From assembly GCA_017557525.1 (NCBI GenBank), contig JAFYYN010000138.1, positions 1 to 64,000 of the forward strand: a DNA stretch of 64,000 nt, in the 5' to 3' direction. The notes under the pieces were generated by a model, which ran no database searches, was not told where the DNA came from, and was given only the letters and a program-made list of their open reading frames with translations. Below, piece after piece: positions 39,632 to 59,234 of the stretch. Both the position numbers and the translations under genes were made by a program. Each line of letters begins with the position of its first letter. Positions within the stretch are counted from its first letter, which is position 1. This DNA comes from Lachnospiraceae bacterium (GTDB taxonomy: Bacteria; Bacillota; Clostridia; Lachnospirales; Lachnospiraceae).

Positions 39632-40348
39632 CTAATCGTTTATATGTATCCTAAGCTTTATAAAATCCCCCAGTGCTTTCCAGCCAATCTTTATGATTTT
39701 CTTTGGATTAATGGTATTTGTACCTTTTTCTCTTGGTTTAAAGCTAATCGGGATAAACAGGGTTCTCTCCTTAAAATATGTAAAATAGGTTGTAAACATA
39801 ATATTAGGTATATTAAATTTTCTGGGGAGCTTACCTATATACTTTTTAACAACCTCTGTTCTCATCAGTCTGAACGGTGCGTTTGCATCCTGGACTTTTA
39901 TCCCAAAAACCAGACGAAGCAAAAAGCATACCGTGTTTTCAACGAATTTTCTGTCTTTTCCATCCCCACGTACTACACGGTTTCCCAGTATAGCATCATA
40001 CTGTTCCCTTTTCTCCCAAAACTCTTCAAACTCAGCAGGGTTTGTCTGGCCATCGGAATCAGTCTGGAATATCCACTCCGCATTTTTCTTTATTGCATAG
40101 CGATACCCTGAAAGTACTGTTGCTCCGTGACCACCATTGGGCTTAGTTTTAGGATCCATCAAAGGACGGGTCTTTGCTAATTCCAACAATTTCTCATATG
40201 TACCGTCCTTTGAGCCATCATTTATTATAACCAGTCTTGAAGTCCCGTTTTCATTATGTTTCTCAACAACCGGATACCAGTCATTTACACATTTATCAAT
40301 ATTTTCTTCCTCGTTGTAAGCGGGAATGACAATATATAATCCTGACAT
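39632..40348 (-). CDS. GT2 glycosyltransferase (dolichol-phosphate-mannose-synthase-like)
   Basis: A 238-residue soluble GT2 of the DPM/polyprenyl-phosphate glycosyltransferase type: IVIPAYNEEENI, NDGSKDGT, TDSDGQ as the DxD motif, GNRVVRGDGKDRKFVE and a late NAPFRLMR segment. There are no transmembrane helices. It probably transfers a sugar to undecaprenyl phosphate, giving the donor for GT-C enzymes nearby. It is the last gene of the long minus-strand cluster, starting 23 bases after the HprK-like kinase gene. Confidence 0.9.
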   Translation of the reverse strand: MSGLYIVIPAYNEEENIDKCVNDWYPVVEKHNENGTSRLVIINDGSKDGTYEKLLELAKTRPLMDPKTKPNGGHGATVLSGYRYAIKKNAEWIFQTDSDGQTNPAEFEEFWEKREQYDAILGNRVVRGDGKDRKFVENTVCFLLRLVFGIKVQDANAPFRLMRTEVVKKYIGKLPRKFNIPNIMFTTYFTYFKERTLFIPISFKPREKGTNTINPKKIIKIGWKALGDFIKLRIHIND

Positions 40349-40371
40349 TATTTACCTCCTACTGTTTTGTA

Positions 40372-41457
40372 TCAAATATCGATAACGCCGTATTCTTTTA
40401 GCTGTGCCAGTAACGCATCCAGGTCTGCCTCAGCCGCATCTTTTTCCACATCAAATTCATCTAATACTGCCTGTAAAAGATCTTCTTTTGATATAGGATT
40501 TTGAAGCTTCTCCCAAATAAAAGCAGAAACATCATTCATTACAACACTTCCGCCAAATACTCCGATATTGTCTCCTGTCGGCATTAAAATATGCTCATCA
40601 ACTACATTTCTTAGTACAAACCCCTTTTTTGCAACCATATCCTTTTTCTCCTCTAGGTAATTATTATTTTGTAGCTCACCATATAATTTTCCGGCATCCT
40701 CTTCATTCGGGCCACAGAAAATACGCACAATGTTCATTGACTTAGCAAGTTTAGTAATATTCATCATCTGTATTGCTGCTGTCTCTGTATCCCACATAGG
40801 TAAAAAGCATTGCTTCATAAGCAGCTTACGTTTCTGAGGTAGTGACATTTTACGGACATAAACAGAATCAGAACGCCTTACCTCGCATATCGCTTTTAAT
40901 GGATAATGTACATTTCTAAAGCATTTCTCTTTTCCATCCCATGGAACTCCGTACAATTCTCCATTCCTGACATCAATCAAAGGTCGATCCCCATTGATAA
41001 GTTTGGCGTCAATCCCTTTTATCCACGCCTCGGCTCTGGTTGATTTGCCAAGACCGGATGGCCCTGTAAAAGCAAATGCCTCACCATTTACTTCTACTGA
41101 AGCTGCATGTAATGAAACATAACCCCTGCGTGCCAGCATACATTCCACAGCTATCCTTACATACCACTCCATCATACCGTAAATGGTATCATCTGTTACT
41201 CCCAGTACCTTTATCCTGCTATAGTCAGAATCAACGCATACTCCTGTATTTTCAGATTTTCCCTCATGGAAAAACCACCCATTTTCGACACGACGGTGTA
41301 TTATGGATCCGGATTCGACATCTATTCCACATGGTGGAAGTTCCTCTGTCTTCACCAATAAAATATCGGGAATACCTTCATTACAGATAAAAGATTCAAA
41401 AGAAGAAAGCTTATATTCTGATTTTATAACTATTTTTGCGATCTGATAGTAGTACAT
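40372..41457 (-). CDS. HprK-like kinase fused to a PqqD-like domain
   Basis: About 361 residues. The central region is the HPr-kinase/phosphorylase-type kinase core: LHAASVEVNGEAFAFTGPSGLGKST (P-loop near 132-140 from this start) and NGDRPLIDV, but without the rest of genuine HprK. The C-terminal 85 residues form a PqqD-like domain (FVLRNVVDEHILMP, FIWEKLQ, LLQAVLDEFDV, LKEYGVIDI) that in ribosomal peptide pathways binds the leader peptide. Kinases of this type phosphorylate a Ser of some lasso peptides, and related kinase/PqqD pairs occur in the uncharacterised HPr-rel-A system. I place the start at 41457, where GGGAG lies 5 bases upstream; four more codons are possible (41469). Confidence 0.85.
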   Translation of the reverse strand: MYYYQIAKIVIKSEYKLSSFESFICNEGIPDILLVKTEELPPCGIDVESGSIIHRRVENGWFFHEGKSENTGVCVDSDYSRIKVLGVTDDTIYGMMEWYVRIAVECMLARRGYVSLHAASVEVNGEAFAFTGPSGLGKSTRAEAWIKGIDAKLINGDRPLIDVRNGELYGVPWDGKEKCFRNVHYPLKAICEVRRSDSVYVRKMSLPQKRKLLMKQCFLPMWDTETAAIQMMNITKLAKSMNIVRIFCGPNEEDAGKLYGELQNNNYLEEKKDMVAKKGFVLRNVVDEHILMPTGDNIGVFGGSVVMNDVSAFIWEKLQNPISKEDLLQAVLDEFDVEKDAAEADLDALLAQLKEYGVIDI

Positions 41458-41474
41458 ATTTTCTCCCATAAGCT

Positions 41475-41930
41475 TTAACTTTTTTCTTTTTTATCTATAA
41501 GTCTGTGCCACCATCGGCCAAGTTTTCTGTATACCCTTCCGGCCTTGTGCCAGAATTTTGCCCAGCGTAGCCCTCTCTTTGGATTAGGTTTTATTTGCCT
41601 CTTCCCGCGCTCAACTAAACTTACCTTCCCCCAGATGCAGCTTTCAGAAATCCATCCGTCAGGTCTGTCACAATGATCTCCCCATGTAAGCGCATTATCA
41701 TTTTCAATCTCCCATACCCTGTGAACAACATATCTTCCTGTACCGGGTTCGTTAAATAATACTATATCACCTACAACAATCTCACCATTAAGCGGTGTAA
41801 TTGTCACATAATCTCTATTCCATCGAACCAATGGAAACATACTGTTTCCGTTTAAAGTAATCCTAACTGGTGGTGCATCACCCTCCATAGCCATACAGTG
41901 CCATTCAGGTATTGATATAGTCTTTTTCAT
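41475..41930 (-). CDS. Soluble S26-like (signal-peptidase-type) serine peptidase
   Basis: A 151-residue protein with the S24/S26 fold. The catalytic serine is in LNGNSMFPL; the dyad partner position reads RYVVHRVW, a His as in the ER-type (archaeal/Sip-like) S26B signal peptidases rather than Lys. GDIVLFNEP and ALTWGDHCDRPD complete the fold. There is no transmembrane helix, which is unusual for a signal peptidase and suggests a cytoplasmic processing enzyme, perhaps for leader removal. The C-terminus is very basic. It follows the 58-residue peptide gene and precedes the kinase by a few bases. Confidence 0.85.
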   Translation of the reverse strand: MKKTISIPEWHCMAMEGDAPPVRITLNGNSMFPLVRWNRDYVTITPLNGEIVVGDIVLFNEPGTGRYVVHRVWEIENDNALTWGDHCDRPDGWISESCIWGKVSLVERGKRQIKPNPKRGLRWAKFWHKAGRVYRKLGRWWHRLIDKKEKS

Positions 41931-42086: not shown

Positions 42087-42263
42087 TCAAGCTTGATCAC
42101 CAATGAAAGGATCATATTTTTTTACCGGAGTAGAATCACATCCGTATACAGAGTCTTCATAAGATATTGTTATGCCTCCCTTACACTGTGGTGATGCCAC
42201 GACTGTTTCAGAATAATCGAATTCAATCTTCTCTACCTTCGGAATTTCATACTTTTTCTTCAT
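42087..42263 (-). CDS. Candidate RiPP precursor peptide 2 (58 aa)
   Basis: A short frame read directly from the minus strand, below usual ORF cutoffs. It starts with ATG at 42263 after AAAGGAG and stops with TGA at 42087. The leader (MKKKYE, Pro8, EK 11-12, Phe15, Tyr17, Glu19, VVAS 21-24) is nearly identical in layout to precursor 1. The core (25-58, PQCKGGITISYEDSV then YGCDSTPVKKYDPFIGDQA) has Cys27 and Cys42 in place of the long Asn-rich core of precursor 1. Located 68 bases after radical SAM enzyme 2 and before the peptidase and HprK-like kinase, it is the likely common substrate of those enzymes. The modification is unknown. Confidence 0.78.
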   Translation of the reverse strand: MKKKYEIPKVEKIEFDYSETVVASPQCKGGITISYEDSVYGCDSTPVKKYDPFIGDQA

Positions 42264-42331: not shown

Positions 42332-43477
42332 CTAGTCACATTCTGGTATAATTGCTATACCTTGTTGAACAAAGAATTTTGTTCTTTTACATAATTCAGT
42401 GGGTCTCTCTCCTGGTTTAACATATTGTAAAGTATTTCCGGAACAATTACTACATACACCACGATATGCACACCCCTGACACTCAGAAACGCGGGGCCAA
42501 CTATTTGCTTTCTTATTTACGCTTTTCCAGGCTTTTGCAAAGCCATCTAACAACGGGAACGCCTTAATAATATTTAAGCGATTACATGGCATCAATGTTC
42601 CCTTCCAGTCAATAACAAAAGACGAACGTCCACCACCACACTGCAAACCACATTCACCACATTCATACAACGGATTACCCGCTGGAGGAAGTTTATCCTC
42701 AGCAATCTCTTTTGTTTCTATGCCATTTAATTCGTTAAGTAATTTATAAATACGAACATACATTTCAGCATTGGCGTCAACATACATTTCAGATTTTCCT
42801 GTTTCTTCCCGTGGATTAAAAAGAGCCGAATTAACAAATACATCTTTTACTAAATTCCTACTTACGCGTATCGTCTCAAAAACATCCTCCCCTAGGTATG
42901 TGCTAGGGGTAATACTAATCCTTATAGGTAAGTCCGCTTCTAATGCCTTACTAATATTTTTTTCCACAACAGAAAAAACACGCCGACCAGTAACACGCTC
43001 ATAAACATCATCATTCCAACCATATAAAGTTATCTTCACTAAATTAGGCCTATGATGTTTGAAAAAGTCAATTCTTCTTTCATCTAATAGATAGCCATTG
43101 GTCAGAACATTAATTTCGCAACCCAGATTATTTAAATACAAATACAATTCTTCAAATCCCGGATATGCCAAACACTCCCCACCAGTTAATGTAGCACACA
43201 TCATACCAGCTTCAAATGCTTGATGCATCAGCTCTTTCCATTTGTCTACTGAAAGGACTTCTCGTCCACCCAGCTGATCCTTGTTAAGATGCACATAGCA
43301 CATCTTACAATCAAAATTACATATTGGCGTTAATTCAAACTGCCCATGAATTGGTACACCTTTTTCTCTTGCCTTAATATCCAAATACTTATAAAAGCTA
43401 TTAAAAGATTGTGTCTTCTTGCCATTTATCTTTTTAATTTCTTCAAGAAACTCGAAGCCATTTTGTGGTTCATTCAA
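42332..43477 (-). CDS. Radical SAM/SPASM peptide-modifying enzyme 2
   Basis: A 381-residue enzyme, same length as radical SAM enzyme 1 and similar throughout: CxxxCxxC at 53/57/60 (ICNFDCKMCYVHL), SPASM cysteines in YECGECGLQCGGG, MPCNR, CQGCAYRGVCSNC and LCKRT. The start is a TTG codon at 43477 with GAAAGGA 9 bases upstream and a strong promoter (43512-43540). It precedes the 58-residue peptide. The predicted product is a ribosomal peptide carrying a radical-installed bond or epimerised residue. Confidence 0.9.
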   Translation of the reverse strand: MNEPQNGFEFLEEIKKINGKKTQSFNSFYKYLDIKAREKGVPIHGQFELTPICNFDCKMCYVHLNKDQLGGREVLSVDKWKELMHQAFEAGMMCATLTGGECLAYPGFEELYLYLNNLGCEINVLTNGYLLDERRIDFFKHHRPNLVKITLYGWNDDVYERVTGRRVFSVVEKNISKALEADLPIRISITPSTYLGEDVFETIRVSRNLVKDVFVNSALFNPREETGKSEMYVDANAEMYVRIYKLLNELNGIETKEIAEDKLPPAGNPLYECGECGLQCGGGRSSFVIDWKGTLMPCNRLNIIKAFPLLDGFAKAWKSVNKKANSWPRVSECQGCAYRGVCSNCSGNTLQYVKPGERPTELCKRTKFFVQQGIAIIPECD

Positions 43478-43511: not shown

Positions 43512-43540
43512 ATTATATAAATTCTTTTACAAATAGTCAA
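43512..43540 (-). promoter_or_regulatory. Internal promoter for radical SAM enzyme 2 and the peptide genes
   Basis: Minus-strand TTGACT (43535-43540), 17-base spacer, TATAAT (43512-43517). It splits the peptide genes from the upstream exopolysaccharide genes for independent expression. Confidence 0.85.
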
Positions 43541-43566: not shown

Positions 43567-44778
43567 TCATTTAAATAGATTCAATCCCTTCACAAGTTTT
43601 CCCCTTTTACCTGCACTAGAAAACAGTTCCTTGCTTGAGACTCCTCGAACCTTTCTGTTGTTTCTAAGAAACCTTACAAGCGTAATAGTCCATAAAACCG
43701 GCCAAAGCAGAAAACACTTTCCCGCCTTTGGAAAATTCAAATGCATCTGATGATGGAACTCTCTTATATAATCAAATATTCCATTCCCACGTAAAGCTAC
43801 CATTCTTCCTTTTGCTTTCCCAAATTCCTCGGCATCCATCAGCTCTTCCATGAAGGACTCGGTTTCTTTTTCAAGTTCCTCTCTTGTCCTGCCATTATCA
43901 AAGGGTGCCATCCAAAGTACTTTTTCTCTTTTTAAACCCAGATATTTTATGCAGGTCCTGGTTATCATATCAGAAAACCCTTTTATCCCGCTTTCATTTA
44001 CCAGGTGCATGTAAGTCTTACCATCTTCTTCACTTAACCCCCGGTTCCATAGTACTACCCAGTCGCAAAGAAGTCTTATGCCAAAACCAGCTCTTAAAAA
44101 ATGCTGAAGCATATGTAATAGTAACTCATAGGCATGATATGCGTCTTCCAACACCGGAACCTCAGCACCCATAATTACTTTTCTAATAGTATGCCTGCCG
44201 CATTCCGTAACCAGACTATCAATGTAAGTGTTTATCCGGTTGTTGTCAAACGGCTCTGCCAGCATTGTATGGACCTCTATCTCAAGACCGTTAAAACCGG
44301 ACATTGATACATGATGTAATGAATGCTGATCATTATCCTTTCTAAATCCGATTTTTTCTATCTCGACTACTGCTCTCTCAATATCAGCAGGATTAGTTAT
44401 TAAAATATCTATATCACCCGATTTTCTAAGTTCCGGAACCGGGAAATCTGCTGCTGCCGCAATACCCTTCATTATGCAGAAAGGTATTCCGGCCTTATTC
44501 AGTATCTTATCAAGCCACAAGTCAACATTCAAAAGACGATAGCTGTTTAAGGCTATCATCCTTGAATATTTTTCAACTTCATTTCTTGAGGTTTCAGGGA
44601 CTGTTTCAATCAGATCAAATGTCTCAAATAGCAAGCTTGCAACGCTATTATTTTTTGCTATACGTACTATTTCTGCCCATTCAGACTCACTGATATCCCC
44701 AATAAAAGCAGGTAACTGCATCTTGTCTGTGTCAAGAGAAAACTCAAGTAGTTTTAGCAGCGTTTCGAATGCCGTCAT
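43567..44778 (-). CDS. NTP_transf_5-family nucleotidyltransferase
   Basis: A 403-residue protein with the uncharacterised nucleotidyltransferase family (NTP_transf_5) signature: IAAAADFPVPELRKSGDIDILI, with the G-D-I-D metal-binding pair, and EIEVHTML downstream. Members occur next to HprK-like kinases and PqqD-like proteins in several peptide and exopolysaccharide clusters, including some lasso peptide loci, but I know of no proven reaction. Possible roles are nucleotidylation of a peptide or a sugar. The stop of the preceding membrane gene overlaps its ATG by one base (TAATG), so translation is coupled. Confidence 0.85.
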   Translation of the reverse strand: MTAFETLLKLLEFSLDTDKMQLPAFIGDISESEWAEIVRIAKNNSVASLLFETFDLIETVPETSRNEVEKYSRMIALNSYRLLNVDLWLDKILNKAGIPFCIMKGIAAAADFPVPELRKSGDIDILITNPADIERAVVEIEKIGFRKDNDQHSLHHVSMSGFNGLEIEVHTMLAEPFDNNRINTYIDSLVTECGRHTIRKVIMGAEVPVLEDAYHAYELLLHMLQHFLRAGFGIRLLCDWVVLWNRGLSEEDGKTYMHLVNESGIKGFSDMITRTCIKYLGLKREKVLWMAPFDNGRTREELEKETESFMEELMDAEEFGKAKGRMVALRGNGIFDYIREFHHQMHLNFPKAGKCFLLWPVLWTITLVRFLRNNRKVRGVSSKELFSSAGKRGKLVKGLNLFK

Positions 44779-47357
44779 TAATTCTCTTCTTCCTCTTCGT
44801 CATCTTCATCCATTAATTCTTTATAGTTTCTTGGCCAGATAGGCTTCTCATAATCTTCTGCCGGTACCATTACTGAAGGATCCATCGTAGCCAGTTCATA
44901 TAGGTTTCTTTGGTTCTGATGGAGATAATAACATAAGAAATCGTCATCTTCATAATATACGTGAAGCTCATTCGGATACATAGCGTTAAACTTCTGACAC
45001 CATACATACGCTTTTGAGTTTAATACGACTCTTGACCAAATTTTTGCATAAACGCTTGAGTCCATAGGAAATCTTCCAAAATATACATTAGCATACTCTT
45101 CACTTATGGTATTTTTATGGATGTCATCTCCTTCACTGCAAAGACCCCAATAATAATCCGTGTACTTCTCTTCAGCTAACCAGTCAGGTCCTACAAAGAA
45201 ATGATACTGGCTTCTTTGTATAGGATTCTTTTCAATATAAATAAATATATATTCTGTAGGAATTGTATAACTCACTACCTCAGATTTATTAATAAACTCG
45301 ATCAGCTCCTCATGATAGCTTTTCCCGATTATCTGGTATAATTCGTCGGTAGACGAAACAATTGTAAAAGATTCATCAGGTAGTGTTGCTGATATCTGCT
45401 TAGTAACCATAACCACACTGTTATATCTTGTGGTCTGATAAAGAAGATATCCGTGAAAACTGTCAAATGCTTTACTTCCAAAATACAAAAATACTATAAG
45501 GCTTCCTGCAATTATCTCTGAAATTTTAAACTTGATCACTTTTGCAAGTTTGTAAAAAATCAGATCAAACGGTACAACAAATACCGGTAAGCCTATCATC
45601 ACCGCCATAGAACAAATTCTGTACGGTTCCATTATCCAGGGAAGTCCAAGCACACCGGAGCAGTAAAAAAGATGTGGAGGAATGCCCATTAGCGGAAGCA
45701 ACAGATACCCAATGTAACTGTTTTTTTCGGTACCGTCAAGTTTTTTAACCTTAACCCGGATACATTCTGCAATAGTAAGTATCAGCCATAATATTATTGC
45801 TATCATGGTAAATATGAACATCGCAGTACCTCTTGTACCCTCTATTCTTTCATATCCATATTCTAGCAATAAAGCTGGAAGTTCTGGAAGCTTCTCAAAA
45901 AAAACTGTACTCAGTAATGCCAATCTTGAGGTTCCTTCTCCAGTATTGGCAGCAACTATTCCATTAACACCGATTTTACTATCTGTACTGTTATATACTG
46001 TTGTATCCCCTTCAATATCCTTTTTCTCTTCTGTATCCGTTAAATCATTCTGCTTATCTTGATCCTGTTTTTCTTCATTCGGCAGTACATCTTCTAATTC
46101 TTCGGGCAGGGGCTCAGCCGGCATAAACAGACTCATAGCCCATGTTAACGAGCCTTGAAGGGGCAGGCCTGACATAAAACATGCTACAAAAGGCATGATC
46201 GCAATTATAAGTCCTGCAAAAATACCTGATAAAAGCGGTAAAAATTTTCTGGAAAAAATCTTTCTTATAAGTGCTACTGCAACTCCTATACATAGAAAAA
46301 GTGCCATCATAGTAGAATAAAAATGTATCATGATGGTCAAAGACATAGCCATAGTAAATAAGAAAAGATTTTCATCCTTTAACCAATAAGGACATTTTAT
46401 CCTAAATTTTCTCTTCGGTGTGCTTATCTCATCTGTTTTGGGTTTCTTCTCTTTCTTTTCTATAACACTAAACCTTAAATACCTGATGAGATATGCAGTA
46501 CATAAAAACATTGCTGGGAATCCGAATTCCTGCGGTAAAGGCCACTGAAGCCTGCACATACTGTACAAAGTCTCAACCCATTTAATATCAACGAACAAAA
46601 ACAATGCCAAGGCAAGCAGTGATGAGTATCTCCATTTGAATATTTGCTTGAACAATATATAAAGAGAAATAAAGGTTACAAATGTATTAATACCACCTAT
46701 AAATATCATGGCACTGTACATCCGCACTCCGCACAGACTTAACAACGAATAGATAAAGAAATGCATGCCCTCCGGATAAATACCGCTGGAAAAGATATTG
46801 TTTACAGAAACCTGATACACCCACTGGGTATGAACATATGCATCTCCACAGCCAAAAGAATAGTCCTGAAAGGCCCCATACGAAAAATACGCCATACCGA
46901 AAACTACAAGCACAAAGAGAGCAATGTATTCAAACCAGCAACCTTTCATCCCTTTGGTAAAGTTTTTCCAGATTGTCCTGATTGTATCCTTTATGAAATT
47001 GAAAATGTCACAGAACATACTTTTGGGTCCATATGTTCCGCTTATCAAATTCTTAAATTTTTTTATGGTAAGACGGCTTATCCTTTTATCTTTTAACAGG
47101 AAAAATAAAAAAATGCCGTAAAAAATCAATCTGTATAACCAATCATACAAAAGACGAGGCATTCCCAATACTACACACGCAAGATTTGTTAATGCAACCA
47201 TGCATATAGTACAAAATGAAAATCTGTATGTTCTTGATTTGCCGGACAAGTGCTTTCTAAATACTACAGATGGCCAAATATACATTACAAAAATAAATGA
47301 TATTAAAACCCATATATATTGAAGAAGCCAATATAACGTATCCACAATTTCCTCCAC
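44778..47357 (-). CDS. Large polytopic membrane glycosyltransferase-like protein
   Basis: An 859-residue protein with about sixteen transmembrane helices and a last soluble domain of about 210 residues ending in an acidic tail (DEDDEEEEEN). The helix pattern and the large external loops fit GT-C-type transferases; a region near 165-210 (GDAYVHTQWVYQV, YPEGMHFFIYSL) holds conserved acidic/aromatic residues. An Asp/Glu/Lys-rich loop (near 435-465) sits on one side of the membrane. No specific family recognised. It lies between DUF4832 and the nucleotidyltransferase, and shares its function class with the GT-C protein at 36432. Confidence 0.7.
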   Translation of the reverse strand: MEEIVDTLYWLLQYIWVLISFIFVMYIWPSVVFRKHLSGKSRTYRFSFCTICMVALTNLACVVLGMPRLLYDWLYRLIFYGIFLFFLLKDKRISRLTIKKFKNLISGTYGPKSMFCDIFNFIKDTIRTIWKNFTKGMKGCWFEYIALFVLVVFGMAYFSYGAFQDYSFGCGDAYVHTQWVYQVSVNNIFSSGIYPEGMHFFIYSLLSLCGVRMYSAMIFIGGINTFVTFISLYILFKQIFKWRYSSLLALALFLFVDIKWVETLYSMCRLQWPLPQEFGFPAMFLCTAYLIRYLRFSVIEKKEKKPKTDEISTPKRKFRIKCPYWLKDENLFLFTMAMSLTIMIHFYSTMMALFLCIGVAVALIRKIFSRKFLPLLSGIFAGLIIAIMPFVACFMSGLPLQGSLTWAMSLFMPAEPLPEELEDVLPNEEKQDQDKQNDLTDTEEKKDIEGDTTVYNSTDSKIGVNGIVAANTGEGTSRLALLSTVFFEKLPELPALLLEYGYERIEGTRGTAMFIFTMIAIILWLILTIAECIRVKVKKLDGTEKNSYIGYLLLPLMGIPPHLFYCSGVLGLPWIMEPYRICSMAVMIGLPVFVVPFDLIFYKLAKVIKFKISEIIAGSLIVFLYFGSKAFDSFHGYLLYQTTRYNSVVMVTKQISATLPDESFTIVSSTDELYQIIGKSYHEELIEFINKSEVVSYTIPTEYIFIYIEKNPIQRSQYHFFVGPDWLAEEKYTDYYWGLCSEGDDIHKNTISEEYANVYFGRFPMDSSVYAKIWSRVVLNSKAYVWCQKFNAMYPNELHVYYEDDDFLCYYLHQNQRNLYELATMDPSVMVPAEDYEKPIWPRNYKELMDEDDEEEEEN

Positions 47358-49447: not shown

Positions 49448-50656
49448 TCAGTCTACAAATATTTTTTTAACTTCTTCTCCGTTATTCATATTTCTTTTTA
49501 ATGCATTTTTCCCAAGACGTTCTCTCAAACCCTTATCTTCAATCAGTTCTTTAATTGATTTTGCAATAGATTTCGAATCAAAAGCACAAGTGAGCCCATC
49601 CTCCCCATGATTTACCTGCTCCCTGTTTCCGCTGCAGTCAGAAACTATTATAGGTTTCCCAAGTATCTGCGCTTCCTGGATTGCAATACTTTTTCCCTCA
49701 AAACGGCTGCAATGCACATAAAGATCAGCTTCTTTTATGTAAGGATATGGATTATCCACTGCCCCAAGCAGAACAAAGTCATTTTGAAGTCCCAGTTCCT
49801 GTATCAGTGATTCCAGTTTGCTTCTCTGATCTCCCTCTCCCAAAACATACCAGCGTATATTTTCTCCGTGCTCTTTAAGCATTTTTGCTGCACGTATTGA
49901 AACCTCAAAGCCCTTTTGTTTCATAAGTCTTCCGACAGTAAGTATTCTAACGCCTTTAAAGCCATCCGAAAAGCCCTCTCCTGTTTCGGCCTTTTCGATA
50001 ATGGCTTCATTATTTAACAGATTATGAAATACTCCTATTTTGTCTGAAATTTCCGGATACACCTTTTTAAATACTGCAGCTACTTCATCAGATACCCCAA
50101 ATATTTTATCAAACTTCAGGTAACAGTCCCTGTCGAGCTCTCTGGTGTACCCAGCTTTTTCATAATCCACATGTATAAATGCTACCCTACGGTCTGCCTC
50201 AACATGATCTGCTACATAATAAGCTGCTGCTCCCTCAATATACGAAACTGCTACATCATACTTTCTTTTAGGTCTCACAGCAGCGTCCGCAATGGGTCTC
50301 CACAAAAGTTTTTCAAGCAATATCTGTTTGTTTTTTAACATTACAGCCCCGTTTTTTACAAAGTAGGGCATAAGCTTTAAACCATTAGCTTCTTTTAACA
50401 AAGCACGGCTTACTTTCTTGGCCAGATGTTTTCTTCCCAGGGAATCATGTACTGAATTAGTATCTACGGTCTTGTTGACCAGTTTAACGCCCTCCGGGAT
50501 CCTGTCTATCAATTCTCCCTGCCCGGTAAGTACATATAATGACACATCATATTCCGATTTATCAATTCTCCTTAAGAGCTCGAGAAGTGCGATTTCTGCT
50601 CCTGCTCTCCCCATCGTATTGATGACAAATAATACTTTTTTTTTCTTTTGTCTCAT
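49448..50656 (-). CDS. Family 4 glycosyltransferase
   Basis: A 402-residue GT-B enzyme. N-terminal domain: VLFVINTMGRAGAEIALLELL; C-terminal domain: ILTVGRLMKQKGFEV, YVLGEGDQRSKLE and the E-x7-E region FEGKSIAIQEAQILGKPIIVSD, as in retaining GT4 transferases acting on nucleotide sugars. Its start overlaps the stop of the DUF2304 gene by four bases (ATGA type). It probably adds a sugar to a repeat unit or lipid-linked acceptor in the same cluster. Confidence 0.9.
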   Translation of the reverse strand: MRQKKKKVLFVINTMGRAGAEIALLELLRRIDKSEYDVSLYVLTGQGELIDRIPEGVKLVNKTVDTNSVHDSLGRKHLAKKVSRALLKEANGLKLMPYFVKNGAVMLKNKQILLEKLLWRPIADAAVRPKRKYDVAVSYIEGAAAYYVADHVEADRRVAFIHVDYEKAGYTRELDRDCYLKFDKIFGVSDEVAAVFKKVYPEISDKIGVFHNLLNNEAIIEKAETGEGFSDGFKGVRILTVGRLMKQKGFEVSIRAAKMLKEHGENIRWYVLGEGDQRSKLESLIQELGLQNDFVLLGAVDNPYPYIKEADLYVHCSRFEGKSIAIQEAQILGKPIIVSDCSGNREQVNHGEDGLTCAFDSKSIAKSIKELIEDKGLRERLGKNALKRNMNNGEEVKKIFVD

Positions 50657-52526: not shown

Positions 52527-52528
52527 GA

Positions 52529-53980
52529 TCAATTCTCCTCAATCTCATTAACCCTTTCAGGGTAGTTAAACCTATAAATCTTGTTATACAAGTCTTTATA
52601 AGTCTGTTGCATCTGGCTTATCTGGTATTTAGCCTTTACACGTTCATATCCGACCTTTCCCAGCTGTTCACGTTTCTCCGGGTGACGCGCCAGTTCTATC
52701 ATTGCCTCTGCCAGTTCTTCAGTGTTCATGATATGTGTAAGGATGCCCGCCTCACCAAGCTGATCCTCTCCTTCGCCATATATAAGTCCCGAGCAATTTC
52801 CTACGTCCGTAGCTATAACAGGCTTTTTAGCGGCGTACCCTTCAAGGATGGTAAGAGGCTGGCCTTCACTGATACTTGTAAGTATGGTAAAATCCATTCT
52901 TCCCATATATTCAGTAACGTTTATCCTTCCGGTAAATACCACATCTCTCAGGTTCATGATCTCTACCATTTCAAAGCACTCATTAGCATATTCCTCATCC
53001 TCGTCAGTAGGTCCCATGATCCAAAGCTTAAGATTAGGTACTATCTGCTTTGCAAAGGAAAAGGCCCTTATCATTGTCTTTACATCCTTGATCGGTGTAA
53101 CCCTAAGTATAGCTCCGATATTGACATACCTGTTATCCTCTTCAGTCTTTCCGGGAATATCCGCAAATCTGGACATGTCTATTCCGTTGGCTGTGATCAT
53201 TATCTTGCTTTCATTACAACCAAGCTCTATCTGAAGCTCCCTAGCATGATTATAAAGGCAGGTAACAGTATCTGCCTTATTATATGCCAGTACTGCCATT
53301 TTTTTAAACTGATCTATCCAGATATTCTTATAAATACCTGCTACCCAGGTAGCCTTTATAAGCTCTTCTTCTCGCTCTCTCGCATAAATACCATGCTCTG
53401 AAACGATCAGTCCGCACTTAAACCTCGACTTTGCCATTCCTCCTAATACACCTGCATATCCGGTAGATACACAATGGTAGATGTCAGCTTTTGGTATAGG
53501 TGTCTTAAGTATCAGGAACAAGGGCATATATATTGATCTCATAGTCCATAAGAAATCCGCAAAGTTAATCTGTGTATAACTGCTTTCATAAAGTTCCTGT
53601 ACTATATGCAGGAAATCCGCTCCCATAAGCAGGTCATCTATTGCGAAATTCTTTTCAAAAAGTTTAAAAACATTGTCCCAGTCAGGATCTTTATTCATAA
53701 CAACACTTCTTAGTGCTCTGTAATATTTCTCCCCGAAATGAGTACGACTTCCAACCTTAGGCTTCTTACCCCAGTCAAAGTCACTTAAGTATGACTCATA
53801 AACAGCTGTTACATTTTCAGGAAGTTCATATGCAAACTTTGCACTCTGGGACCTGTCTGCTATTATTGAAAGTATTACGAACTCATGCTGTGGGAAGGCT
53901 TTTATCATACTGTGTATCCATCCGGAAACTCCGCCGACCACGTAAGGATAACAGCCCTCTGCAACAAAACATATTCTCAT
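52529..53980 (-). CDS. pelF: PelF-family glycosyltransferase
   Basis: A 483-residue GT4 enzyme. The PelF hallmark is the start CFVAEGCYPYVVGGVSGWIH, followed by ITANGIDMSRF, GAILRVTPIKDVKTMI, FTGRINVTEYMGRMDF, and EGQPLTILEGYAAKKPVIATD (E-x7-E). PelF is the cytosolic synthase of Pel, a partially deacetylated galactosamine/glucosamine polymer in characterised species. The gene sits directly before pelG, as in every Pel operon, and after a secreted-type protein in the PelA position. Confidence 0.95.
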   Translation of the reverse strand: MRICFVAEGCYPYVVGGVSGWIHSMIKAFPQHEFVILSIIADRSQSAKFAYELPENVTAVYESYLSDFDWGKKPKVGSRTHFGEKYYRALRSVVMNKDPDWDNVFKLFEKNFAIDDLLMGADFLHIVQELYESSYTQINFADFLWTMRSIYMPLFLILKTPIPKADIYHCVSTGYAGVLGGMAKSRFKCGLIVSEHGIYAREREEELIKATWVAGIYKNIWIDQFKKMAVLAYNKADTVTCLYNHARELQIELGCNESKIMITANGIDMSRFADIPGKTEEDNRYVNIGAILRVTPIKDVKTMIRAFSFAKQIVPNLKLWIMGPTDEDEEYANECFEMVEIMNLRDVVFTGRINVTEYMGRMDFTILTSISEGQPLTILEGYAAKKPVIATDVGNCSGLIYGEGEDQLGEAGILTHIMNTEELAEAMIELARHPEKREQLGKVGYERVKAKYQISQMQQTYKDLYNKIYRFNYPERVNEIEEN

Positions 53981-54016: not shown

Positions 54017-55816
54017 TTAATCAAAAGGTCCGTCATAATGGAAAACCTCTTCGGATTCCCTAACCGTGATAGTTGTATCACCGGGTTTTACCTTAAGAAG
54101 GTAAGAATCCTTTTCTATACGGGTATACTCCGCATTATCAGATATCCCGGTTATCTCCGTATCATGAAGCCTAATTATGAAGTAATTTTCATCAGCTCCC
54201 GAAGTATGCAGTACAATAGTTTTATCATCCTTTTTCTCGTCACTATACTTTACGCTAAGCATTTTTCTAATTCTTGCGTCACTTTCCGAGATTGTTGTAG
54301 CATCAAATACCATCCAGTCGGACCAGTATGATGTTACATAACTAAATACATGATCAAAGAAGTTCTGCCACTCATCATCCTCTGACCCCGGCCATATAAC
54401 CTGGCTCATGTCAACAAGAACGTTTGTATATCCCAAGGAAGTAAGCAAACTCCTGTAAAGCAGTGCATTTTTAAATGTGTATTCATCAGCCTTGTTTGTT
54501 GCGTACTGAATGGTCACGTTATCAGAACAGAATGAAATAGCCTGATTATTATTTCTTACACTGCTTACGACAGTCCTTATATCCGGCTCCTGATTATCAA
54601 GGATGTCCTTCATCTCATCCTTCCATTCCTTGATATAAAGGCTCCTGAACCTGTAATTTATTCCTTCTTCCAAAAAGTATTTCCTGCTCAGTTCTGCTTT
54701 TTCTGTAAGTGAAATACTTCCTTTATAATCAAGGGATCTGCCTGCTTCAGCATCAAGCTCTTTCATCTGCTGCAGATAAAATTTGGTTTCATCACGACTT
54801 ATTTCTGCTTCATGGTCGTGGTCAAATCGTTCCGACAGGAAACAGGTCATGCAAAACTCGCTTCTGGTAGCCATAGATATAATTCCGGGCCATGCTATAT
54901 CTCTTTGAAATCCTTCTGCATCTCTGGCATAAATTTTCTTTAATTCTTCCGAATTCTCGTTGGACAGGTAAGGGAAATCCGCAAAAACTATATTATTGGC
55001 ATTTACTACAGGGTAAATATAGTATTCCTTAGTGTCATACATCATGGAATCAAGGAATCCTATTCCCATCATTCCCTGCAGATAATCACCGTTTACCGCA
55101 TAAATAAAAGTACCGTTATAATAGCTTCGCCAGATCATCTTCGGGAAATCATAAGGATGGACTAGATCCTCATCCATAACCCCTACGATGTAAGTCTTGG
55201 TTCCAAGCCCCGTATCATACCATGCTATATCAAGATCCAGGTCTTCAAATCTTTTCTCTTCAGGAACATCTTTATTTACTGCGTATACTGTTTCTCCTCC
55301 GAGCAGAAACCCGCTAAATATCTGCACGCCCTCTACATGTACTGCAGGCTGAACCACTTTGGTAATACCCAGTAATTTTTTCAGTTCCTCGTCACTGTCT
55401 ATATAAGCTGCATCTGGGAGATCTCCAAATATCATCGTGGCTCTGAGCTCTGTAAGTTTAAGGAGTTTATCCGTCTTATTCTTAATATCTACAGTCTTAG
55501 GGTCGATAACAATTGCTTCGAGTCCTGTTATTGTAATTGGTTCGGGTATCTCAGAAAAAACTTCCAGCTGCTGCCTGGTATAAGTACACCACTGACGGAC
55601 TGCATCACCTACAGGTCCCTCAATGTCACCTACAAACCACACCTTTTTTTCTGCCTCTACAACCGGTACATCCGAAGCCTTTAGTTCAACTTCTACTACA
55701 TGTTCATTAACATCATATTCATTTCCCTGAGCCTTCATGACTAGTGAAAACTGAAAGATAAAGAATACAGTTGCCATCATCAGAAAAATGGCGAAATAAT
55801 CTCTTCTAGAAAGCAT
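54017..55816 (-). CDS. Membrane-anchored protein in the PelA position (DUF2194-like)
   Basis: A 599-residue protein with an N-terminal transmembrane segment (about 8-28) and an extracytoplasmic region. Residues about 55-200 look Rossmann-like (VWFVGDIEGPVGDAVRQW, LEAIVIDP, RATMIFGDL). The middle and C-terminal regions include CFLSERFDHDHEAEIS, NQAISFCSDNVTIQYA and WPGSEDDEW, then a small beta domain at 520-599. It occupies the place that PelA-type hydrolase/deacetylase genes hold in Gram-positive pel operons, and from memory it resembles DUF2194 proteins, but I cannot confirm an active site. A surface polysaccharide-processing role is inferred. Confidence 0.65.
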   Translation of the reverse strand: MLSRRDYFAIFLMMATVFFIFQFSLVMKAQGNEYDVNEHVVEVELKASDVPVVEAEKKVWFVGDIEGPVGDAVRQWCTYTRQQLEVFSEIPEPITITGLEAIVIDPKTVDIKNKTDKLLKLTELRATMIFGDLPDAAYIDSDEELKKLLGITKVVQPAVHVEGVQIFSGFLLGGETVYAVNKDVPEEKRFEDLDLDIAWYDTGLGTKTYIVGVMDEDLVHPYDFPKMIWRSYYNGTFIYAVNGDYLQGMMGIGFLDSMMYDTKEYYIYPVVNANNIVFADFPYLSNENSEELKKIYARDAEGFQRDIAWPGIISMATRSEFCMTCFLSERFDHDHEAEISRDETKFYLQQMKELDAEAGRSLDYKGSISLTEKAELSRKYFLEEGINYRFRSLYIKEWKDEMKDILDNQEPDIRTVVSSVRNNNQAISFCSDNVTIQYATNKADEYTFKNALLYRSLLTSLGYTNVLVDMSQVIWPGSEDDEWQNFFDHVFSYVTSYWSDWMVFDATTISESDARIRKMLSVKYSDEKKDDKTIVLHTSGADENYFIIRLHDTEITGISDNAEYTRIEKDSYLLKVKPGDTTITVRESEEVFHYDGPFD

Positions 55817-55836
55817 TTTTTAACCTCTTAATATGA

Positions 55837-56751
55837 TCAGGTAAATACTCTAATAAGCTCCAGTGTCTCTTTGTCTATAACTATAGGCGATGCCTTTAAT
55901 TCATCAATGCAGTTGAAAAACTCAGCACGTCTGCCTTGACTAAAGAAAAGTTTAAGCTGGCAGGTGTATGATGAAAGAGCCGATGGACAATGGATTCTCG
56001 AGCGCTCGCACCACTTTTCACATTTTTCATAGTCCTCAATGCCAAGCAGCCTTAATGAAATGGCCTCAAACTGTTCTGGAGTAATGCTATCAGGTTCTCC
56101 CATGTATAATATCTCACCTACAGCTTCCATGATACCTACATAGCTTCTTTGTTCCATCTCAATAAATACCTTCTGAGAAAGTACCTGATCCATATAATCT
56201 ATAAGGTTTCTGCACCTTTCATACTTATCGGGTGCATCCTCCATTATCTCTTTATATTCCTTGTCCACTGTAGTCCTGAAATTATTTAATGCATCCTGTA
56301 ATACTGATGCTGCATAATGGGCAGTCTCTGTATCCTCACTGTTTAAGGCTAACGTAATCGATGCCAAAGAGTTTTTGATATCACTCGATACAACATTCAT
56401 CATGAGAGCACGCAGATCCTGCTTTTCAGTAATGGCTATAGCCTCTTCAAGAGGTATCATGTTTCTTTCCTTGTCTTCCTCAGCTTTCATCTCAAACTTT
56501 GGATGATCCTTTCCAAAGATAACGTCTTCCAGATCAACCGGTGCTGACATGAAAACCTTGTACCAAAGGTACGAAAGACAGATAAAAACTATACCTACTA
56601 CAGGACATAAAGCTATAACCAGTGCTTTAATTAGTATACTTTTTTCCTTATTCCTCTTTATCACAAAATTAACTATATAATAAATTGCCGCTGCGATAAA
56701 GTTTAGAACTATAAGGGTTATTATCAGGATACCCTGTCCGGTCGTAGACAT
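55837..56751 (-). CDS. pelE: PelE-like membrane protein
   Basis: A 304-residue protein with two transmembrane helices (about 8-30 and 41-63) and a cytosolic helical domain (about 90-304) of tetratricopeptide-like repeats. This is the layout of PelE, which joins PelD, PelF and PelG in the inner-membrane polymerisation complex. The start overlaps the end of the PelD-fusion gene by 28 bases, giving translational coupling. The identification leans on position (between pelD and the PelA-position gene) as much as sequence. Confidence 0.75.
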   Translation of the reverse strand: MSTTGQGILIITLIVLNFIAAAIYYIVNFVIKRNKEKSILIKALVIALCPVVGIVFICLSYLWYKVFMSAPVDLEDVIFGKDHPKFEMKAEEDKERNMIPLEEAIAITEKQDLRALMMNVVSSDIKNSLASITLALNSEDTETAHYAASVLQDALNNFRTTVDKEYKEIMEDAPDKYERCRNLIDYMDQVLSQKVFIEMEQRSYVGIMEAVGEILYMGEPDSITPEQFEAISLRLLGIEDYEKCEKWCERSRIHCPSALSSYTCQLKLFFSQGRRAEFFNCIDELKASPIVIDKETLELIRVFT

Positions 56752-58931
56752 ACTATACCATCCTCCACTATCTCTGAATCAACGCCCATTTTGTCAAATC
56801 TCTTCTGTACAAAGTCTGCATCGTTACGGCTGGTATTAGCCAAAAGCACATGAAGTGCGCCATCCTCAATACCCATGATGTCGCTCTGCCTTAAGTGCTG
56901 GTAAAGATTAGCGCTTAAACTATGGAGATTTTCTCCTTCCCTCATATTTATCCTGACTAAAACACACTCTGCAAGTCCGTTCTTTTCCGCATTTTGGAAT
57001 GCATTAAGCAATAAACCGAAAGCTTCAGGTTCAAGCACTTTTGTTCCTTCTATATATCGCTTTTCCTGCAGAGCCTGTAAATATCTTGTAGAACGAACAA
57101 CTGCGCCCTTTATTAGTGCCGAAATAACTATCAGCTGATTTGCCTGACCTAAAGTCATATTTTCCCAAGGCAGTGTCCATACCATCAGCATAATAAGGGG
57201 ATGTCCGTCATCATCAAAGATCATGTTTGCCATCATAGGAAGACTCTCTTCCATCTTCCTGTTAATAAAGACTTTCTTATTAACCAGTACTTCATACATA
57301 CTGCCAAGCTGCTCTTTGTATTTTATCGAGTTCCCAAGTGACCTTGCCTTTTTCGAAGTAGCTGAGAAAAGACGTGCATAATTGTCATTTACTATATTGT
57401 AGATTGCAACATCCTTACTCTTTACAAGTGTTGACAACATATCTGCGGCATAGAAAAGAACCTCTTCAGGACTTCGCTGATCAAGGGCTGAGGTAATGCT
57501 GTAAATCTTTCCTACCGAGTCATTCTGGTTTACGATCTGAGTCTCTAAAGCGTCCTTAACTCGTACATTGCTTGAGTTTATGTCCTTCATATCCCCAAGC
57601 TGCCCGGATAGGAATTCCTTTTCTTCCTTGCTTTCCCTTCTTAGCATTGATATCTGGTCGCGCATGTACCCGACTACAAGTCCTAAGATGAATATCTGTG
57701 CAATCCATACATATGTATTTGTGTCGAGCATAAGCTCAAATCCCGTCTGATGATACATCTGCCTGAAACAATAGCCGATAGTTGCAAGTACTGCAGAAAA
57801 TACCGCCTGCTGCTGACCATAAACAATCGCAAAAATCAGTACATATAACAAATAAAAATCCAATTTAGCAAAATATTTACTATCCGTCGCCCTGTTATTG
57901 AGCATAAAGAATGGGATAAAAGCTATAAGATTCTCAACAAAAGGAATCATGGCCTTTATCAACCATCCACCCCTGTCAAATATCCTTTGTACTAAGGATT
58001 TCTGTTTTTCTTCGTCACTATAGAATGCAGGCTTATTTAACTGCATAGTCCTGCAGATTCGCTTTACAATGTCATTATCATTACAGTAAAACTGCTTTCC
58101 AAATTCATCAATAAATCTCTCGTTTGAAAGAACAATCCTCTTCTTTTCACCGGAAAGGCTCAGAATCTGTGTGTTATCGCCCGAGTACTGCTTAACCACC
58201 TCAGCAAGCTCCGGCTCACCGATTTCCTTGCAGGATGAAATATTATATAAACTATATTTATGAGAATCAGCTACCGCAAGGCGATAGATAAACTCTACAG
58301 CATCCGTTTCATACAGAAGTGCAAATCTGCTGTTCTCATTTACTGTGATCTTATCAGAGTCAAATGCCTCAAGACACATCTTTGAACACTTGTCACGACA
58401 TTCACTTCGTCTCTTGGGGATCCCGTATACATGATCAAGTCTCAGTGTCAGAATATCTTTTTCACGGCTCACACGATAGCTGTCACACATTTCTTCAGCC
58501 TGCGCCAAAAGCATATTTCTGACGCCGATAGGTGTGGGCTGATCCTCTTCCGTAAGGTTTGTATCACTTCCCAAGCTGTAAACCTCATCGGATGACAGAT
58601 AGACAAATCTGCCTTGGTTTTTCATTGCGTAGCTCATGAGGATATTCATAAGTCCTGATGAATACTGTACCGCGTCAGCCTCTTCGTGATGCCACTTATA
58701 ATTTGTGTCGTATGCTCCAAGGAAAATCGTGAGATCCATATGTATACTTTCAAAGATCTCATTAAGGCAGGCACAATCATAAGGGAAATTGTACCTTTCA
58801 AAAACCTTTTGATACGGAGCCTTTTCGTTTCTGGATCCGGACAAAAGGTATACTCTGTGCCCTTCCTTTTTAAATTTGATGATTAGACTGTTGATCAGGC
58901 TTCCTGATCCGCCAATAAGAAGTACGTTCAC
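56724..58931 (-). CDS. pelD: SDR/epimerase-like domain fused to PelD c-di-GMP receptor
   Basis: A 735-residue fusion. Residues 1-300 are an SDR/NAD-dependent epimerase-like domain (NAD loop GGSGSL at 7-12, VYLSSDEVYSLGS), but the usual catalytic YxxxK is not visible: the region that should carry it reads PIGVRNMLL (134-142). Residues about 325-425 hold four transmembrane helices, as in PelD; a coiled coil and GAF domain follow (about 430-610), then a degenerate GGDEF-like domain whose GGDEF is lost. The RxxD site is kept as R681-Q-S-D684, the type of motif by which PelD binds c-di-GMP and activates Pel synthesis. It is second in the cluster, 33 bases after the PqqD-like gene. Confidence 0.85.
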   Translation of the reverse strand: MNVLLIGGSGSLINSLIIKFKKEGHRVYLLSGSRNEKAPYQKVFERYNFPYDCACLNEIFESIHMDLTIFLGAYDTNYKWHHEEADAVQYSSGLMNILMSYAMKNQGRFVYLSSDEVYSLGSDTNLTEEDQPTPIGVRNMLLAQAEEMCDSYRVSREKDILTLRLDHVYGIPKRRSECRDKCSKMCLEAFDSDKITVNENSRFALLYETDAVEFIYRLAVADSHKYSLYNISSCKEIGEPELAEVVKQYSGDNTQILSLSGEKKRIVLSNERFIDEFGKQFYCNDNDIVKRICRTMQLNKPAFYSDEEKQKSLVQRIFDRGGWLIKAMIPFVENLIAFIPFFMLNNRATDSKYFAKLDFYLLYVLIFAIVYGQQQAVFSAVLATIGYCFRQMYHQTGFELMLDTNTYVWIAQIFILGLVVGYMRDQISMLRRESKEEKEFLSGQLGDMKDINSSNVRVKDALETQIVNQNDSVGKIYSITSALDQRSPEEVLFYAADMLSTLVKSKDVAIYNIVNDNYARLFSATSKKARSLGNSIKYKEQLGSMYEVLVNKKVFINRKMEESLPMMANMIFDDDGHPLIMLMVWTLPWENMTLGQANQLIVISALIKGAVVRSTRYLQALQEKRYIEGTKVLEPEAFGLLLNAFQNAEKNGLAECVLVRINMREGENLHSLSANLYQHLRQSDIMGIEDGALHVLLANTSRNDADFVQKRFDKMGVDSEIVEDGIVCLRPDRVS

Positions 58932-58964
58932 GCTGCCTCCTAAAATGTGTGGACTATGTATCTG

Positions 58965-59234
58965 TCAGCTTTCTCTGTCCGGTACATATCCGAATTCCTT
59001 CAGCTGCAGTTCAAAACCTACTATGTCTCCCAATACATCCTCAGGCTTTGAACTGTATCTGTCGCCTAGTATCTCTGCTATCTGCTGATTGCTCTTACCT
59101 TCCTGCATCAGCTCAAAAATCTCTGCCCCCACTTCATTCATAGGGAGGGGCTTTTTGTAGCTTCCTATTTCCTGCTCCATATCTAAAAGCCAGTATATTC
59201 CTGCTGCATGCCTTAGTTGAAACTTGTTATTCAT
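58965..59234 (-). CDS. PqqD-like peptide-binding protein
   Basis: An 89-residue protein of the PqqD family: YWLLDMEQE near the start, MNEVGAEIFELMQEGKSNQQIAEIL, and a closing DIVGFELQLKEFGYV. PqqD proteins and their relatives (RRE domains) bind leader peptides and present them to radical SAM enzymes. It is the first gene of the exopolysaccharide/peptide run, with AAGGAG about 10 bases upstream of the ATG and its own promoter. A separate PqqD-like domain is fused to the HprK-like kinase at the other end of the run. Confidence 0.85.
   Translation of the reverse strand: MNNKFQLRHAAGIYWLLDMEQEIGSYKKPLPMNEVGAEIFELMQEGKSNQQIAEILGDRYSSKPEDVLGDIVGFELQLKEFGYVPDRES

What the first reader, a model, noticed from the sequence alone, without database searches (positions are those of the whole stretch)
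39632..59234. Pel-type exopolysaccharide machine in one run with a radical SAM / HprK-PqqD / peptidase peptide pathway
Seen: minus-strand genes with gaps of mostly under 40 bases and several overlaps run from a PqqD-like protein through SDR-PelD, PelE-like, a PelA-position protein, PelF, PelG, DUF2304, GT4, GT2, DUF4832, a GT-C-like protein and NTP_transf_5, then radical SAM/SPASM, a 58-residue peptide, an S26-like peptidase, an HprK-like kinase with a PqqD domain, and GT2. Known: PqqD/RRE proteins serve leader binding for radical SAM enzymes; HprK-like kinases and NTP_transf_5 proteins accompany some lasso peptide and HPr-rel-A loci. Inference: a modified ribosomal peptide is made with, and perhaps attached to, a c-di-GMP-controlled polysaccharide. 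I know of no described system of this composition.
Basis: partly seen in the sequence, partly recalled or inferred. Interest (0 to 1): 0.93.

Follow-up and report, generated by a model that had tools for sequence, protein, structure and literature searches.

The report
Biofilm-sugar operon with own protein exporter
A gut/rumen bacterium's biofilm-sugar (Pel) operon carries its own leader-guided export line for small folded proteins, which suggests a sugar and a matching matrix protein made together; the radical-SAM peptide genes beside it look like a local add-on.

Summary
The tightly packed operon runs from PqqD to NTP_transf_5 (59234-43567). An 89-bp gap with a near-perfect promoter follows; the radical SAM/58-aa peptide/S26/HprK-PqqD genes after it belong to a block missing from the three closest fetched relatives that show this stretch. 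There the operon continues directly into a leader-bearing 134-179 aa "cargo" protein and an MsbA-like exporter, which in the window sit 10.6 kb further on (32940-30612, outside the finding).
The cargo leader (YxxP...EGVYAAS) precedes eight BLAST-distinct core types, one a CBM_2 carbohydrate-binding domain. Its model rang in 23 of 397 family genomes, all with PelG (11 of 11 in genomes not looked at before), in 19 within 30 kb of it.
The gene set (PqqD/RRE, SipW-like S26, HprK-like kinase, NTP transferase, MsbA-like exporter, YxxP leader) matches the LPP pathway of Popov et al. 2026, whose role is unknown. Best reading: c-di-GMP-responsive Pel operons of many Lachnospiraceae carry an LPP-type route exporting folded, perhaps sugar-binding matrix proteins. 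Chemistry, export and attachment are inferred, not shown. New variant of a known kind.

The parts
58965..59234 (-). PqqD-type RRE (89 aa), first gene of the Pel operon
   Evidence: PF05402 32.6 bits over cut-off; directly upstream of SDR-PelD in 45 of 62 named loci
56724..58931 (-). SDR-PelD fusion with degenerate GGDEF and RxxD I-site (R681, D684)
   Evidence: Epimerase PF01370; RxxD invariant 94 of 94, R711 93 of 94 homologs
55837..56751 (-). PelE-like
   Evidence: position and conservation in Pel loci; no Pfam family over cut-off
54017..55816 (-). PelA-position protein, DUF2194-like
   Evidence: PF09960 41.4 bits over cut-off 30.4; no PDB relative at E<=1
52529..53980 (-). PelF glycosyltransferase
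   Evidence: NF038011 378 bits, cut-off 100
51051..52532 (-). PelG exporter
   Evidence: PF16933 487 bits
50653..51039 (-). DUF2304 protein
   Evidence: PF10066 33.8 bits over cut-off
49448..50656 (-). GT4 glycosyltransferase
   Evidence: PF00534; conserved neighbour
48643..49434 (-). GT2 glycosyltransferase
   Evidence: PF00535; conserved neighbour
47373..48668 (-). DUF4874/DUF4832 protein, probable glycoside hydrolase-like
   Evidence: PF16173, PF16116; DUF4832 protein SIR_1591 is a hydrolase that disperses Pel aggregates in S. intermedius (PMC12345266, passages)
44778..47357 (-). large membrane GT-C-like protein
43567..44778 (-). NTP_transf_5 nucleotidyltransferase, Pel-linked clade
   Evidence: PF14907 111 bits; tree 98/93 with 12 rows, 10 from Pel contigs; DxD D122/D124 invariant 31 of 31
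43512..43540 (-). promoter-like site opening the interposed block
   Evidence: TTGACT-17-TATAAT, 11 of 12
42332..43477 (-). radical SAM/SPASM maturase 1 (interposed block)
   Evidence: PF04055 72 bits; no such gene labelled in 80 named PelG loci
42087..42263 (-). precursor 1, 58 aa, leader MKKKYEIPKVEKIEFDYSETVVAS
   Evidence: sequence
41475..41930 (-). SipW-like S26 peptidase (interposed block)
   Evidence: TIGR02228 41.5 bits, under cut-off 51.85; S30, H70, D85 invariant 29 of 29; outside the Pel-linked S26 clade, long branch
40372..41469 (-). HprK-like kinase with C-terminal PqqD (interposed block)
   Evidence: PqqD PF05402 58 bits; H121, K142, D161 invariant 55 of 55; outside the Pel-linked PqqD-HprK clade, long branch
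39632..40348 (-). GT2 glycosyltransferase (interposed block)
   Evidence: PF00535
34541..34780 (-). precursor 2, 79 aa, leader MKKKYESPMAEKYEFNYVENVVAS
33271..34416 (-). radical SAM/SPASM maturase 2
   Evidence: PF04055 71 bits; 56% identical to maturase 1
32518..32940 (-). leader-bearing cargo protein (140 aa), beta family
   Evidence: alignment A1; 1.5e-53 in the A1 search, being itself one of the A1 seeds; no Pfam family
30612..32393 (-). MsbA-like ABC exporter without peptidase domain, Pel-linked clade
   Evidence: PF00664, PF00005; MsbA_rel 231 bits, under its cut-off 780; 100/100 clade of 11, 9 from Pel contigs

Best explanation
This is a Pel-type exopolysaccharide operon that has an LPP-type (RRE / HprK kinase / SipW-like peptidase / NTP transferase / MsbA-like exporter) pathway built into it. 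Proposed working order: the PqqD protein (RRE) binds the YxxP leader of the cargo protein; an HprK-like kinase phosphorylates the conserved Ser at the leader-core border; the S26 peptidase removes the leader; NTP_transf_5 may decorate the phospho-Ser, perhaps with a sugar; the exporter secretes the small folded core, a matrix protein that binds (or is grafted to) the polymer that PelDEFG makes under c-di-GMP control. In this species the Pel-type S26 and PqqD-HprK kinase lie on another contig (C4). A block with two radical SAM/precursor pairs, another S26 and another HprK-PqqD stands between NTP5 and the cargo-exporter pair. Shown here: gene content, order, clades, shared leader with different cores, restriction to PelG genomes in the sample, intact catalytic residues. 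Inferred from LPP biochemistry: phosphorylation, cleavage. Inferred only: secretion of the cargo, sugar-binding role, attachment, and insertion of the block rather than its loss in relatives.
For: Operon continuity PqqD to NTP5; PqqD next to PelD, 45 of 62. Relatives L190, L192, L194 (84-91% PelG identity) run NTP5-cargo-ABC with 160-214 bp between NTP5 and cargo. Leader/cargo model A1: 23 of 397 family genomes, all 23 among the 72 with PelG, 19 within 30 kb; genomes not looked at before 11 of 11 against 42 of 247, p about 1e-9; 2 of 391 genomes in the class sample, both already known. In the first 150 genomes 11 of 12 cargo genomes had a kinase-domain match; the twelfth, G146, 68% complete, matched only in the PqqD part. 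Window exporter and NTP5 fall in Pel-linked clades; the C4 kinase and S26 join the Pel-linked clades. 49 distinct cargos in eight core clusters, leader identity 56% between clusters against 9% shuffled, no hydrophobic signal. One cargo is CBM_2, 29.4 bits, cut-off 24. Catalytic residues intact; PelD RxxD 94 of 94. LPP biochemistry: PMC13381572.
Against: No wet evidence. Only 1 of 19 of the 49 leader cargos scanned has a Pfam family; the main beta family (38 of 49) has no recognised relative in Pfam or PDB among the members and profiles tried, and the CBM_2 cargo is a single case with only weak PDB matches (E 0.35). Many Pel loci lack the set: 9 of 21 non-CotH loci (some on short contigs) and all 9 counted CotH-type loci. 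S26 and kinase of the Pel-linked type are not in the Pel locus here and often lie divergent or on other contigs. Only 18 of 31 named loci with room after NTP5 show the leader ORF within 2.6 kb (15 by pattern, three by eye); L195 and L196 show neither cargo nor exporter in the fetched flank. A1 seeds came from Pel neighbourhoods and the leader patterns fixed some residues, so conservation figures are partly by construction. The placement of the window S26 and kinase outside the Pel clades rests on long branches.
Confidence: 0.68

Rival explanations
1. One reading: a radical SAM-modified ribosomal peptide is the product, made with and perhaps attached to the Pel polymer.
For: Both radical SAM/precursor pairs lie inside the block flanked by Pel-operon parts, and their leaders share the YxxP and Ala-Ser spacing of the cargo leader; window S26 and HprK-PqqD sit next to precursor 1.
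Against: No radical SAM labelled in 80 named PelG loci; of 30 PelG contigs mapped in detail only the window and G087 (about 25 kb from PelG) have one; own promoter-like site and wider gaps; rSAM homologs on another contig or about 93 kb off in relatives.
Confidence: 0.1
2. Hitch-hiking: polysaccharide loci are gene-exchange hot spots; the LPP set makes a bacteriocin-like peptide unrelated to Pel.
For: LPP and lasso clusters sit in capsule loci of Bacilli (PMC13381572) with patchy gain and loss; HprK/S26/NTP5 sets are common off Pel in the family.
Against: Pel-linked clades of exporter, NTP5, kinase and S26; all 23 cargo genomes have PelG; PqqD often overlaps PelD; long cores, one CBM_2.
Confidence: 0.15
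3. PqqD, HprK and NTP5 serve the polysaccharide itself (for example phosphoglycosyl decoration of the polymer) and the cargo is an independent secreted protein.
For: The alternative Pel loci carry CotH kinase, with VTC and DUF4956, so a kinase plus phosphate chemistry seems wanted in either case; Roseburia pel loci were read as capsule/teichoic-like, with NTase and PTase in the legend (PMC7112168).
Against: RRE and YxxP leader pairing is a peptide-recognition signature (PMC13381572); the cargo leader recurs next to NTP5 and exporter.
Confidence: 0.07

Closest known systems
LPP (linear polyphosphorylated peptide) RiPPs, Popov et al. 2026, PMC13381572 (abstract, introduction, three results sections and discussion read, other passages by term search)
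   Same: RRE, SipW-like Ser-His-Asp peptidase, HprK-like kinase, NTP transferase, MsbA-like exporter, YxxP leader, variable 35-200 aa precursors, neighbourhood of polysaccharide genes
   Different: Bacilli and capsule loci there; here Lachnospiraceae and inside a Pel operon, leader EGVYAAS instead of FETxxS, PqqD-HprK fusion, long cores including a CBM_2; radical SAM, Pel and Lachnospir- have 0 mentions in that paper's main text
Gram-positive pelDEADAFG operon, Whitfield et al. 2020, PMC7112168 (passages)
   Same: SDR-PelD, PelE, PelA position, PelF, PelG, DUF4832 accessory gene; the Roseburia loci in its S7 legend list an NTase
   Different: PqqD and ABC transporter have 0 mentions in its main text; Roseburia clusters read as capsule or teichoic acid; figure not seen
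Paeninodin/pseudomycoidin lasso peptides, PMC9266682 (passages)
   Same: HprK-like kinase plus NTP transferase; PsmK phosphorylates a Ser, PsmN adds hexoses to the phosphate
   Different: no macrolactam synthetase or B2 peptidase among the proteins scanned here; long cores; kinase target Ser there is C-terminal
HPr-rel-A and SynChlorMet cassettes (NCBIfam models)
   Same: HprK-related kinase with PqqD partner and, for SynChlorMet, radical SAM enzymes
   Different: window kinase scores 23.4 of 200 bits (TIGR04352) and 21.8 of 125 (TIGR04249)

Membership tests
LPP RiPP pathway | SpI/SipW-like peptidase with Ser-His-Asp | tested here: met
   S30, H70, D85 invariant 29 of 29; TIGR02228 41.5 bits, under its cut-off
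LPP RiPP pathway | discrete RRE (PqqD) | tested here: met
   PF05402 over cut-off at 58965-59234
LPP RiPP pathway | HprK-like kinase | tested here: met
   weak TIGR04352 match 2.7e-5, under its cut-off; His, Lys, Asp invariant 55 of 55
LPP RiPP pathway | NTP transferase and MsbA-like exporter | tested here: met
   PF14907; MsbA_rel 231 bits, under its curated cut-off of 780
LPP RiPP pathway | YxxP leader with variable core | tested here: met
   49 cargos, eight core clusters; Y and P were in the search pattern
LPP RiPP pathway | leader ending FETxxS | tested here: not met
   cargo leaders end EGVYAAS or close variants; precursor 1 has SETVVAS
LPP RiPP pathway | polyphosphorylated Ser and RRE-dependent leader cleavage | not testable with these tools
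   needs biochemistry
Gram-positive Pel operon | PelF and PelG | tested here: met
Gram-positive Pel operon | PelD c-di-GMP I-site RxxD | tested here: met
   R681 and D684 in 94 of 94; binding itself not tested
Gram-positive Pel operon | PelA deacetylase | tested here: inconclusive
   only DUF2194, no PDB relative
Lasso peptide | macrolactam synthetase and B2 peptidase | tested here: not met
   none among window proteins scanned between 24.3 and 59.2 kb; the rest of the window was not scanned by family
HPr-rel-A system | kinase over TIGR04352 cut-off | tested here: not met
   23.4 of 200 bits

The most novel reading that the evidence does not exclude
The Pel operon of many gut and rumen Lachnospiraceae makes a glycoprotein matrix in one stroke: a leader-guided, kinase-gated, Sec-independent export line secretes interchangeable folded carbohydrate-binding domains whose phospho-Ser is linked by the NTP transferase to sugar, grafting the protein onto the Pel-type polymer.
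Probability: 0.2. Interest if true: 0.92.

Novelty: new variant of a known kind. Interest (0 to 1): 0.72.

Why it matters
The LPP pathway has no known role (PMC13381572), and as far as I know the protein partners of Gram-positive Pel are not described. It also suggests a RiPP-type leader system carrying protein-sized cores.

Tried and rejected
Considered and rejected: lasso peptide (no cyclase or B2 among window proteins scanned); HPr-rel-A/SynChlorMet (scores far under cut-offs); chance neighbourhood (held-out test); radical SAM as the conserved element (0 of 80 named loci).

Led nowhere: Rfam scan of the window at gathering scores, 0 matches; PDB profile searches with the cargo families gave only chance-level hits (the CBM_2 cargo found cellulose-binding domains at E 0.35-0.38); PelA-position protein against PDB, none. 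An early count of PqqD upstream of PelD gave 28 of 64 because overlapping genes were excluded; with overlaps allowed and a slightly different room rule it is 45 of 62. The leader pattern missed L190, L192 and L194 (Thr in place of Ala/Ser), which were added by eye. Gene calls and labels in the neighbourhoods come from my own simple ORF caller and profiles and can miss genes: PelG itself was labelled in 77 of 80 named loci, and genes were lost in G043, G012 and G140.
Full report
Observation. The seventeen genes of the finding are real. From PqqD (59234) to NTP_transf_5 (43567) they are packed with gaps of at most 36 bp and five overlaps; after that come gaps of 89, 68 and 156 bp. The 89-bp gap holds TTGACT-17-TATAAT on the coding strand, and a GC-rich hairpin lies between the 58-aa peptide and the S26 gene (such promoter-like matches are overall no more frequent than in shuffles). 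The run is therefore better seen as two units.

Outside the finding. Below 39.6 kb lie further glycosylation-type genes, a second radical SAM gene 56% identical to the first, a second precursor with nearly the same leader (MKKKYESPMAEKYEFNYVENVVAS against MKKKYEIPKVEKIEFDYSETVVAS), a 140-aa protein beginning MKNYVSPVILDNEELAEGVYAS (32518-32940) and an MsbA-like exporter with no peptidase domain found (30612-32393).

Neighbourhoods. PelG was found in 30 of 150 family genomes and relatives of the HprK-PqqD protein in 47 of 150. The mapped PelG loci (30 contigs labelled PelG, plus G140 where my gene caller missed it) fall into alternative architectures: ten carry a CotH homolog (CotH, VTC and DUF4956 verified by Pfam in one, G102; the others by phmmer), and none of the nine counted has NTP5, PqqD or HprK within 20 kb; of the other 21, twelve have at least one of these. 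Trees place the window exporter in a 100/100 clade of 11 rows, nine from Pel contigs, and the window NTP5 in a 98/93 clade of 12 rows, ten from Pel contigs. The Pel-linked kinase clade (100/100, 11 rows, eight from Pel contigs) carries a fused PqqD in ten of 11 rows, N-terminal where I checked; the window's own HprK-PqqD, with PqqD at the C-terminus, is outside it on a long branch, while a second copy in the same genome (contig C4) is inside. The S26 next to that copy likewise joins the Pel-linked S26 clade (95/86), and the window S26 does not, again on a long branch.

Named relatives. One genome-contig scan with a PelG alignment gave 80 loci (the best of 339), mostly gut and rumen Lachnospiraceae MAGs, with the cultured Fusicatenibacter saccharivorans, Blautia luti and Coprococcus catus. 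PqqD lies directly upstream of SDR-PelD in 45 of 62 loci with room to see it, fourteen with the same 4-base overlap. No gene was labelled radical SAM in any of the 80. In the three relatives with 84-91% PelG identity that show the whole stretch (L190, L192, L194) the order is NTP5, cargo, exporter with 160-214 bp between NTP5 and cargo; in the window that gap is 10,626 bp. L191 and L193 are cut by contig ends before that point. Two slightly more distant relatives (L195, L196) have neither cargo nor exporter within the fetched flank. In the genomes of L190, L192 and L194 the PqqD-HprK kinase of the C4 type (44-53% identity) is on contigs of other lengths than the Pel contig. The closest radical SAM homologs found, in the genomes of L190 and L196, are HprK-radical SAM fusions with YxxP precursors of their own; in L190's genome on another contig, in L196's on a contig of the same length as the Pel contig but about 93 kb away. 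This supports an interposed block in the window lineage, although loss in relatives is not excluded.

Leader and cargo. Forty-nine distinct cargo ORFs share an 18-residue leader, roughly YxxPxVLxxEELAEGVYA, followed by cores that fall into eight BLAST clusters (38, 4, 2 and five singletons). Leader identity between members of different clusters is 56% against 9% for shuffled leaders. Y, P and the E-x-V end were in my search patterns, so their invariance is partly by construction; the columns between were not fixed. No leader has a hydrophobic stretch, so Sec export is unlikely (inference). Of the 49, 19 were scanned against Pfam: one (L208, Acetatifactor sp. HAN003) is a CBM_2 domain at 29.4 bits, cut-off 24; the other 18 have no family over cut-off.

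Association test. The cargo model A1, built from eight Pel-linked seeds, matches 23 of 397 family genomes, some only in the leader; all 23 are among the 72 with a PelG match (70 over the cut-off). Because the seeds were chosen near PelG, the fair test is the 247 genomes not looked at before: 11 of 11 cargo genomes have PelG against 42 of 247 overall (p about 1e-9; not corrected for kinship, though by genus it was 20 of 20 against 64 of 334 in the full set). Nineteen of 23 have the cargo on the PelG contig, 18 within 20 kb and one at 28 kb; four are on other contigs of drafts. In 391 genomes sampled across the class only the two known ones match.

Mechanism. Catalytic residues are intact: S26 Ser-His-Asp in 29 of 29, kinase His/Lys/Asp in 55 of 55, NTP5 DxD in 31 of 31. 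The PelD RxxD site is present in 94 of 94 and a downstream Arg in 93 of 94. These parts match the LPP pathway (PMC13381572): an RRE binds the YxxP leader, the kinase phosphorylates a Ser just after the cleavage site, a SipW-like peptidase cleaves with the RRE's help, and an MsbA-like pump is present; deleting the NTP transferase had no visible effect there, but PsmN of pseudomycoidin adds hexoses to a phospho-Ser (PMC9266682). Most cargo leaders have a Ser in the matching region (EGVYAAS). I infer that the operon's cargo is phosphorylated, trimmed and exported, and that it acts on or in the Pel matrix. That last step is supported only by co-location and by one CBM_2 cargo.

Novelty. The LPP authors noted capsule loci in Bacilli and speculated about biofilms; the Gram-positive Pel paper noted odd Roseburia loci with an NTase (legend only). 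Searches for papers joining PelG and PqqD (four papers by listing, judged by title unrelated, not read), the gene set (none) and Pel/RiPP terms (listings) found no description of the union in the held library, which lacks most subscription journals. I rate it a new variant of a known kind.

Noticed in passing
window 33271-34780: Second radical SAM/precursor pair; the two radical SAMs are sisters (98/88) next to an HprK-radical SAM fusion type, suggesting duplication of a two-gene module.
   Followed up: partly
L080 (G000 C4:84000-103000): Another polysaccharide-type region in the same genome with PqqD-HprK, S26, an exporter and PqqD, but no PelG labelled there.
   Followed up: partly
L081:14322-17507 and similar loci: Pel loci of the family come in a CotH type (with VTC and DUF4956 in G102) and an LPP type that did not overlap in the sample; both bring a kinase.
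   Followed up: partly
L068, L096, L089, L177, L260 (type with CDSxYMNGVW...GCLGCPA): A Cys-rich cargo family with the same leader and no Pfam family over cut-off in the two members scanned.
   Followed up: partly
window 27265-29776: Two GH43 glycoside hydrolase genes past the exporter, and a putative methyltransferase (PF02390) at 29970-30605.
   Followed up: no
family-wide, e.g. G120, G124, G032, G103, G025 C64: Many HprK/PqqD/radical SAM/S26/NTP5/ABC sets away from Pel, some with other YxxP-type precursors; perhaps a large peptide family of its own.
   Followed up: no
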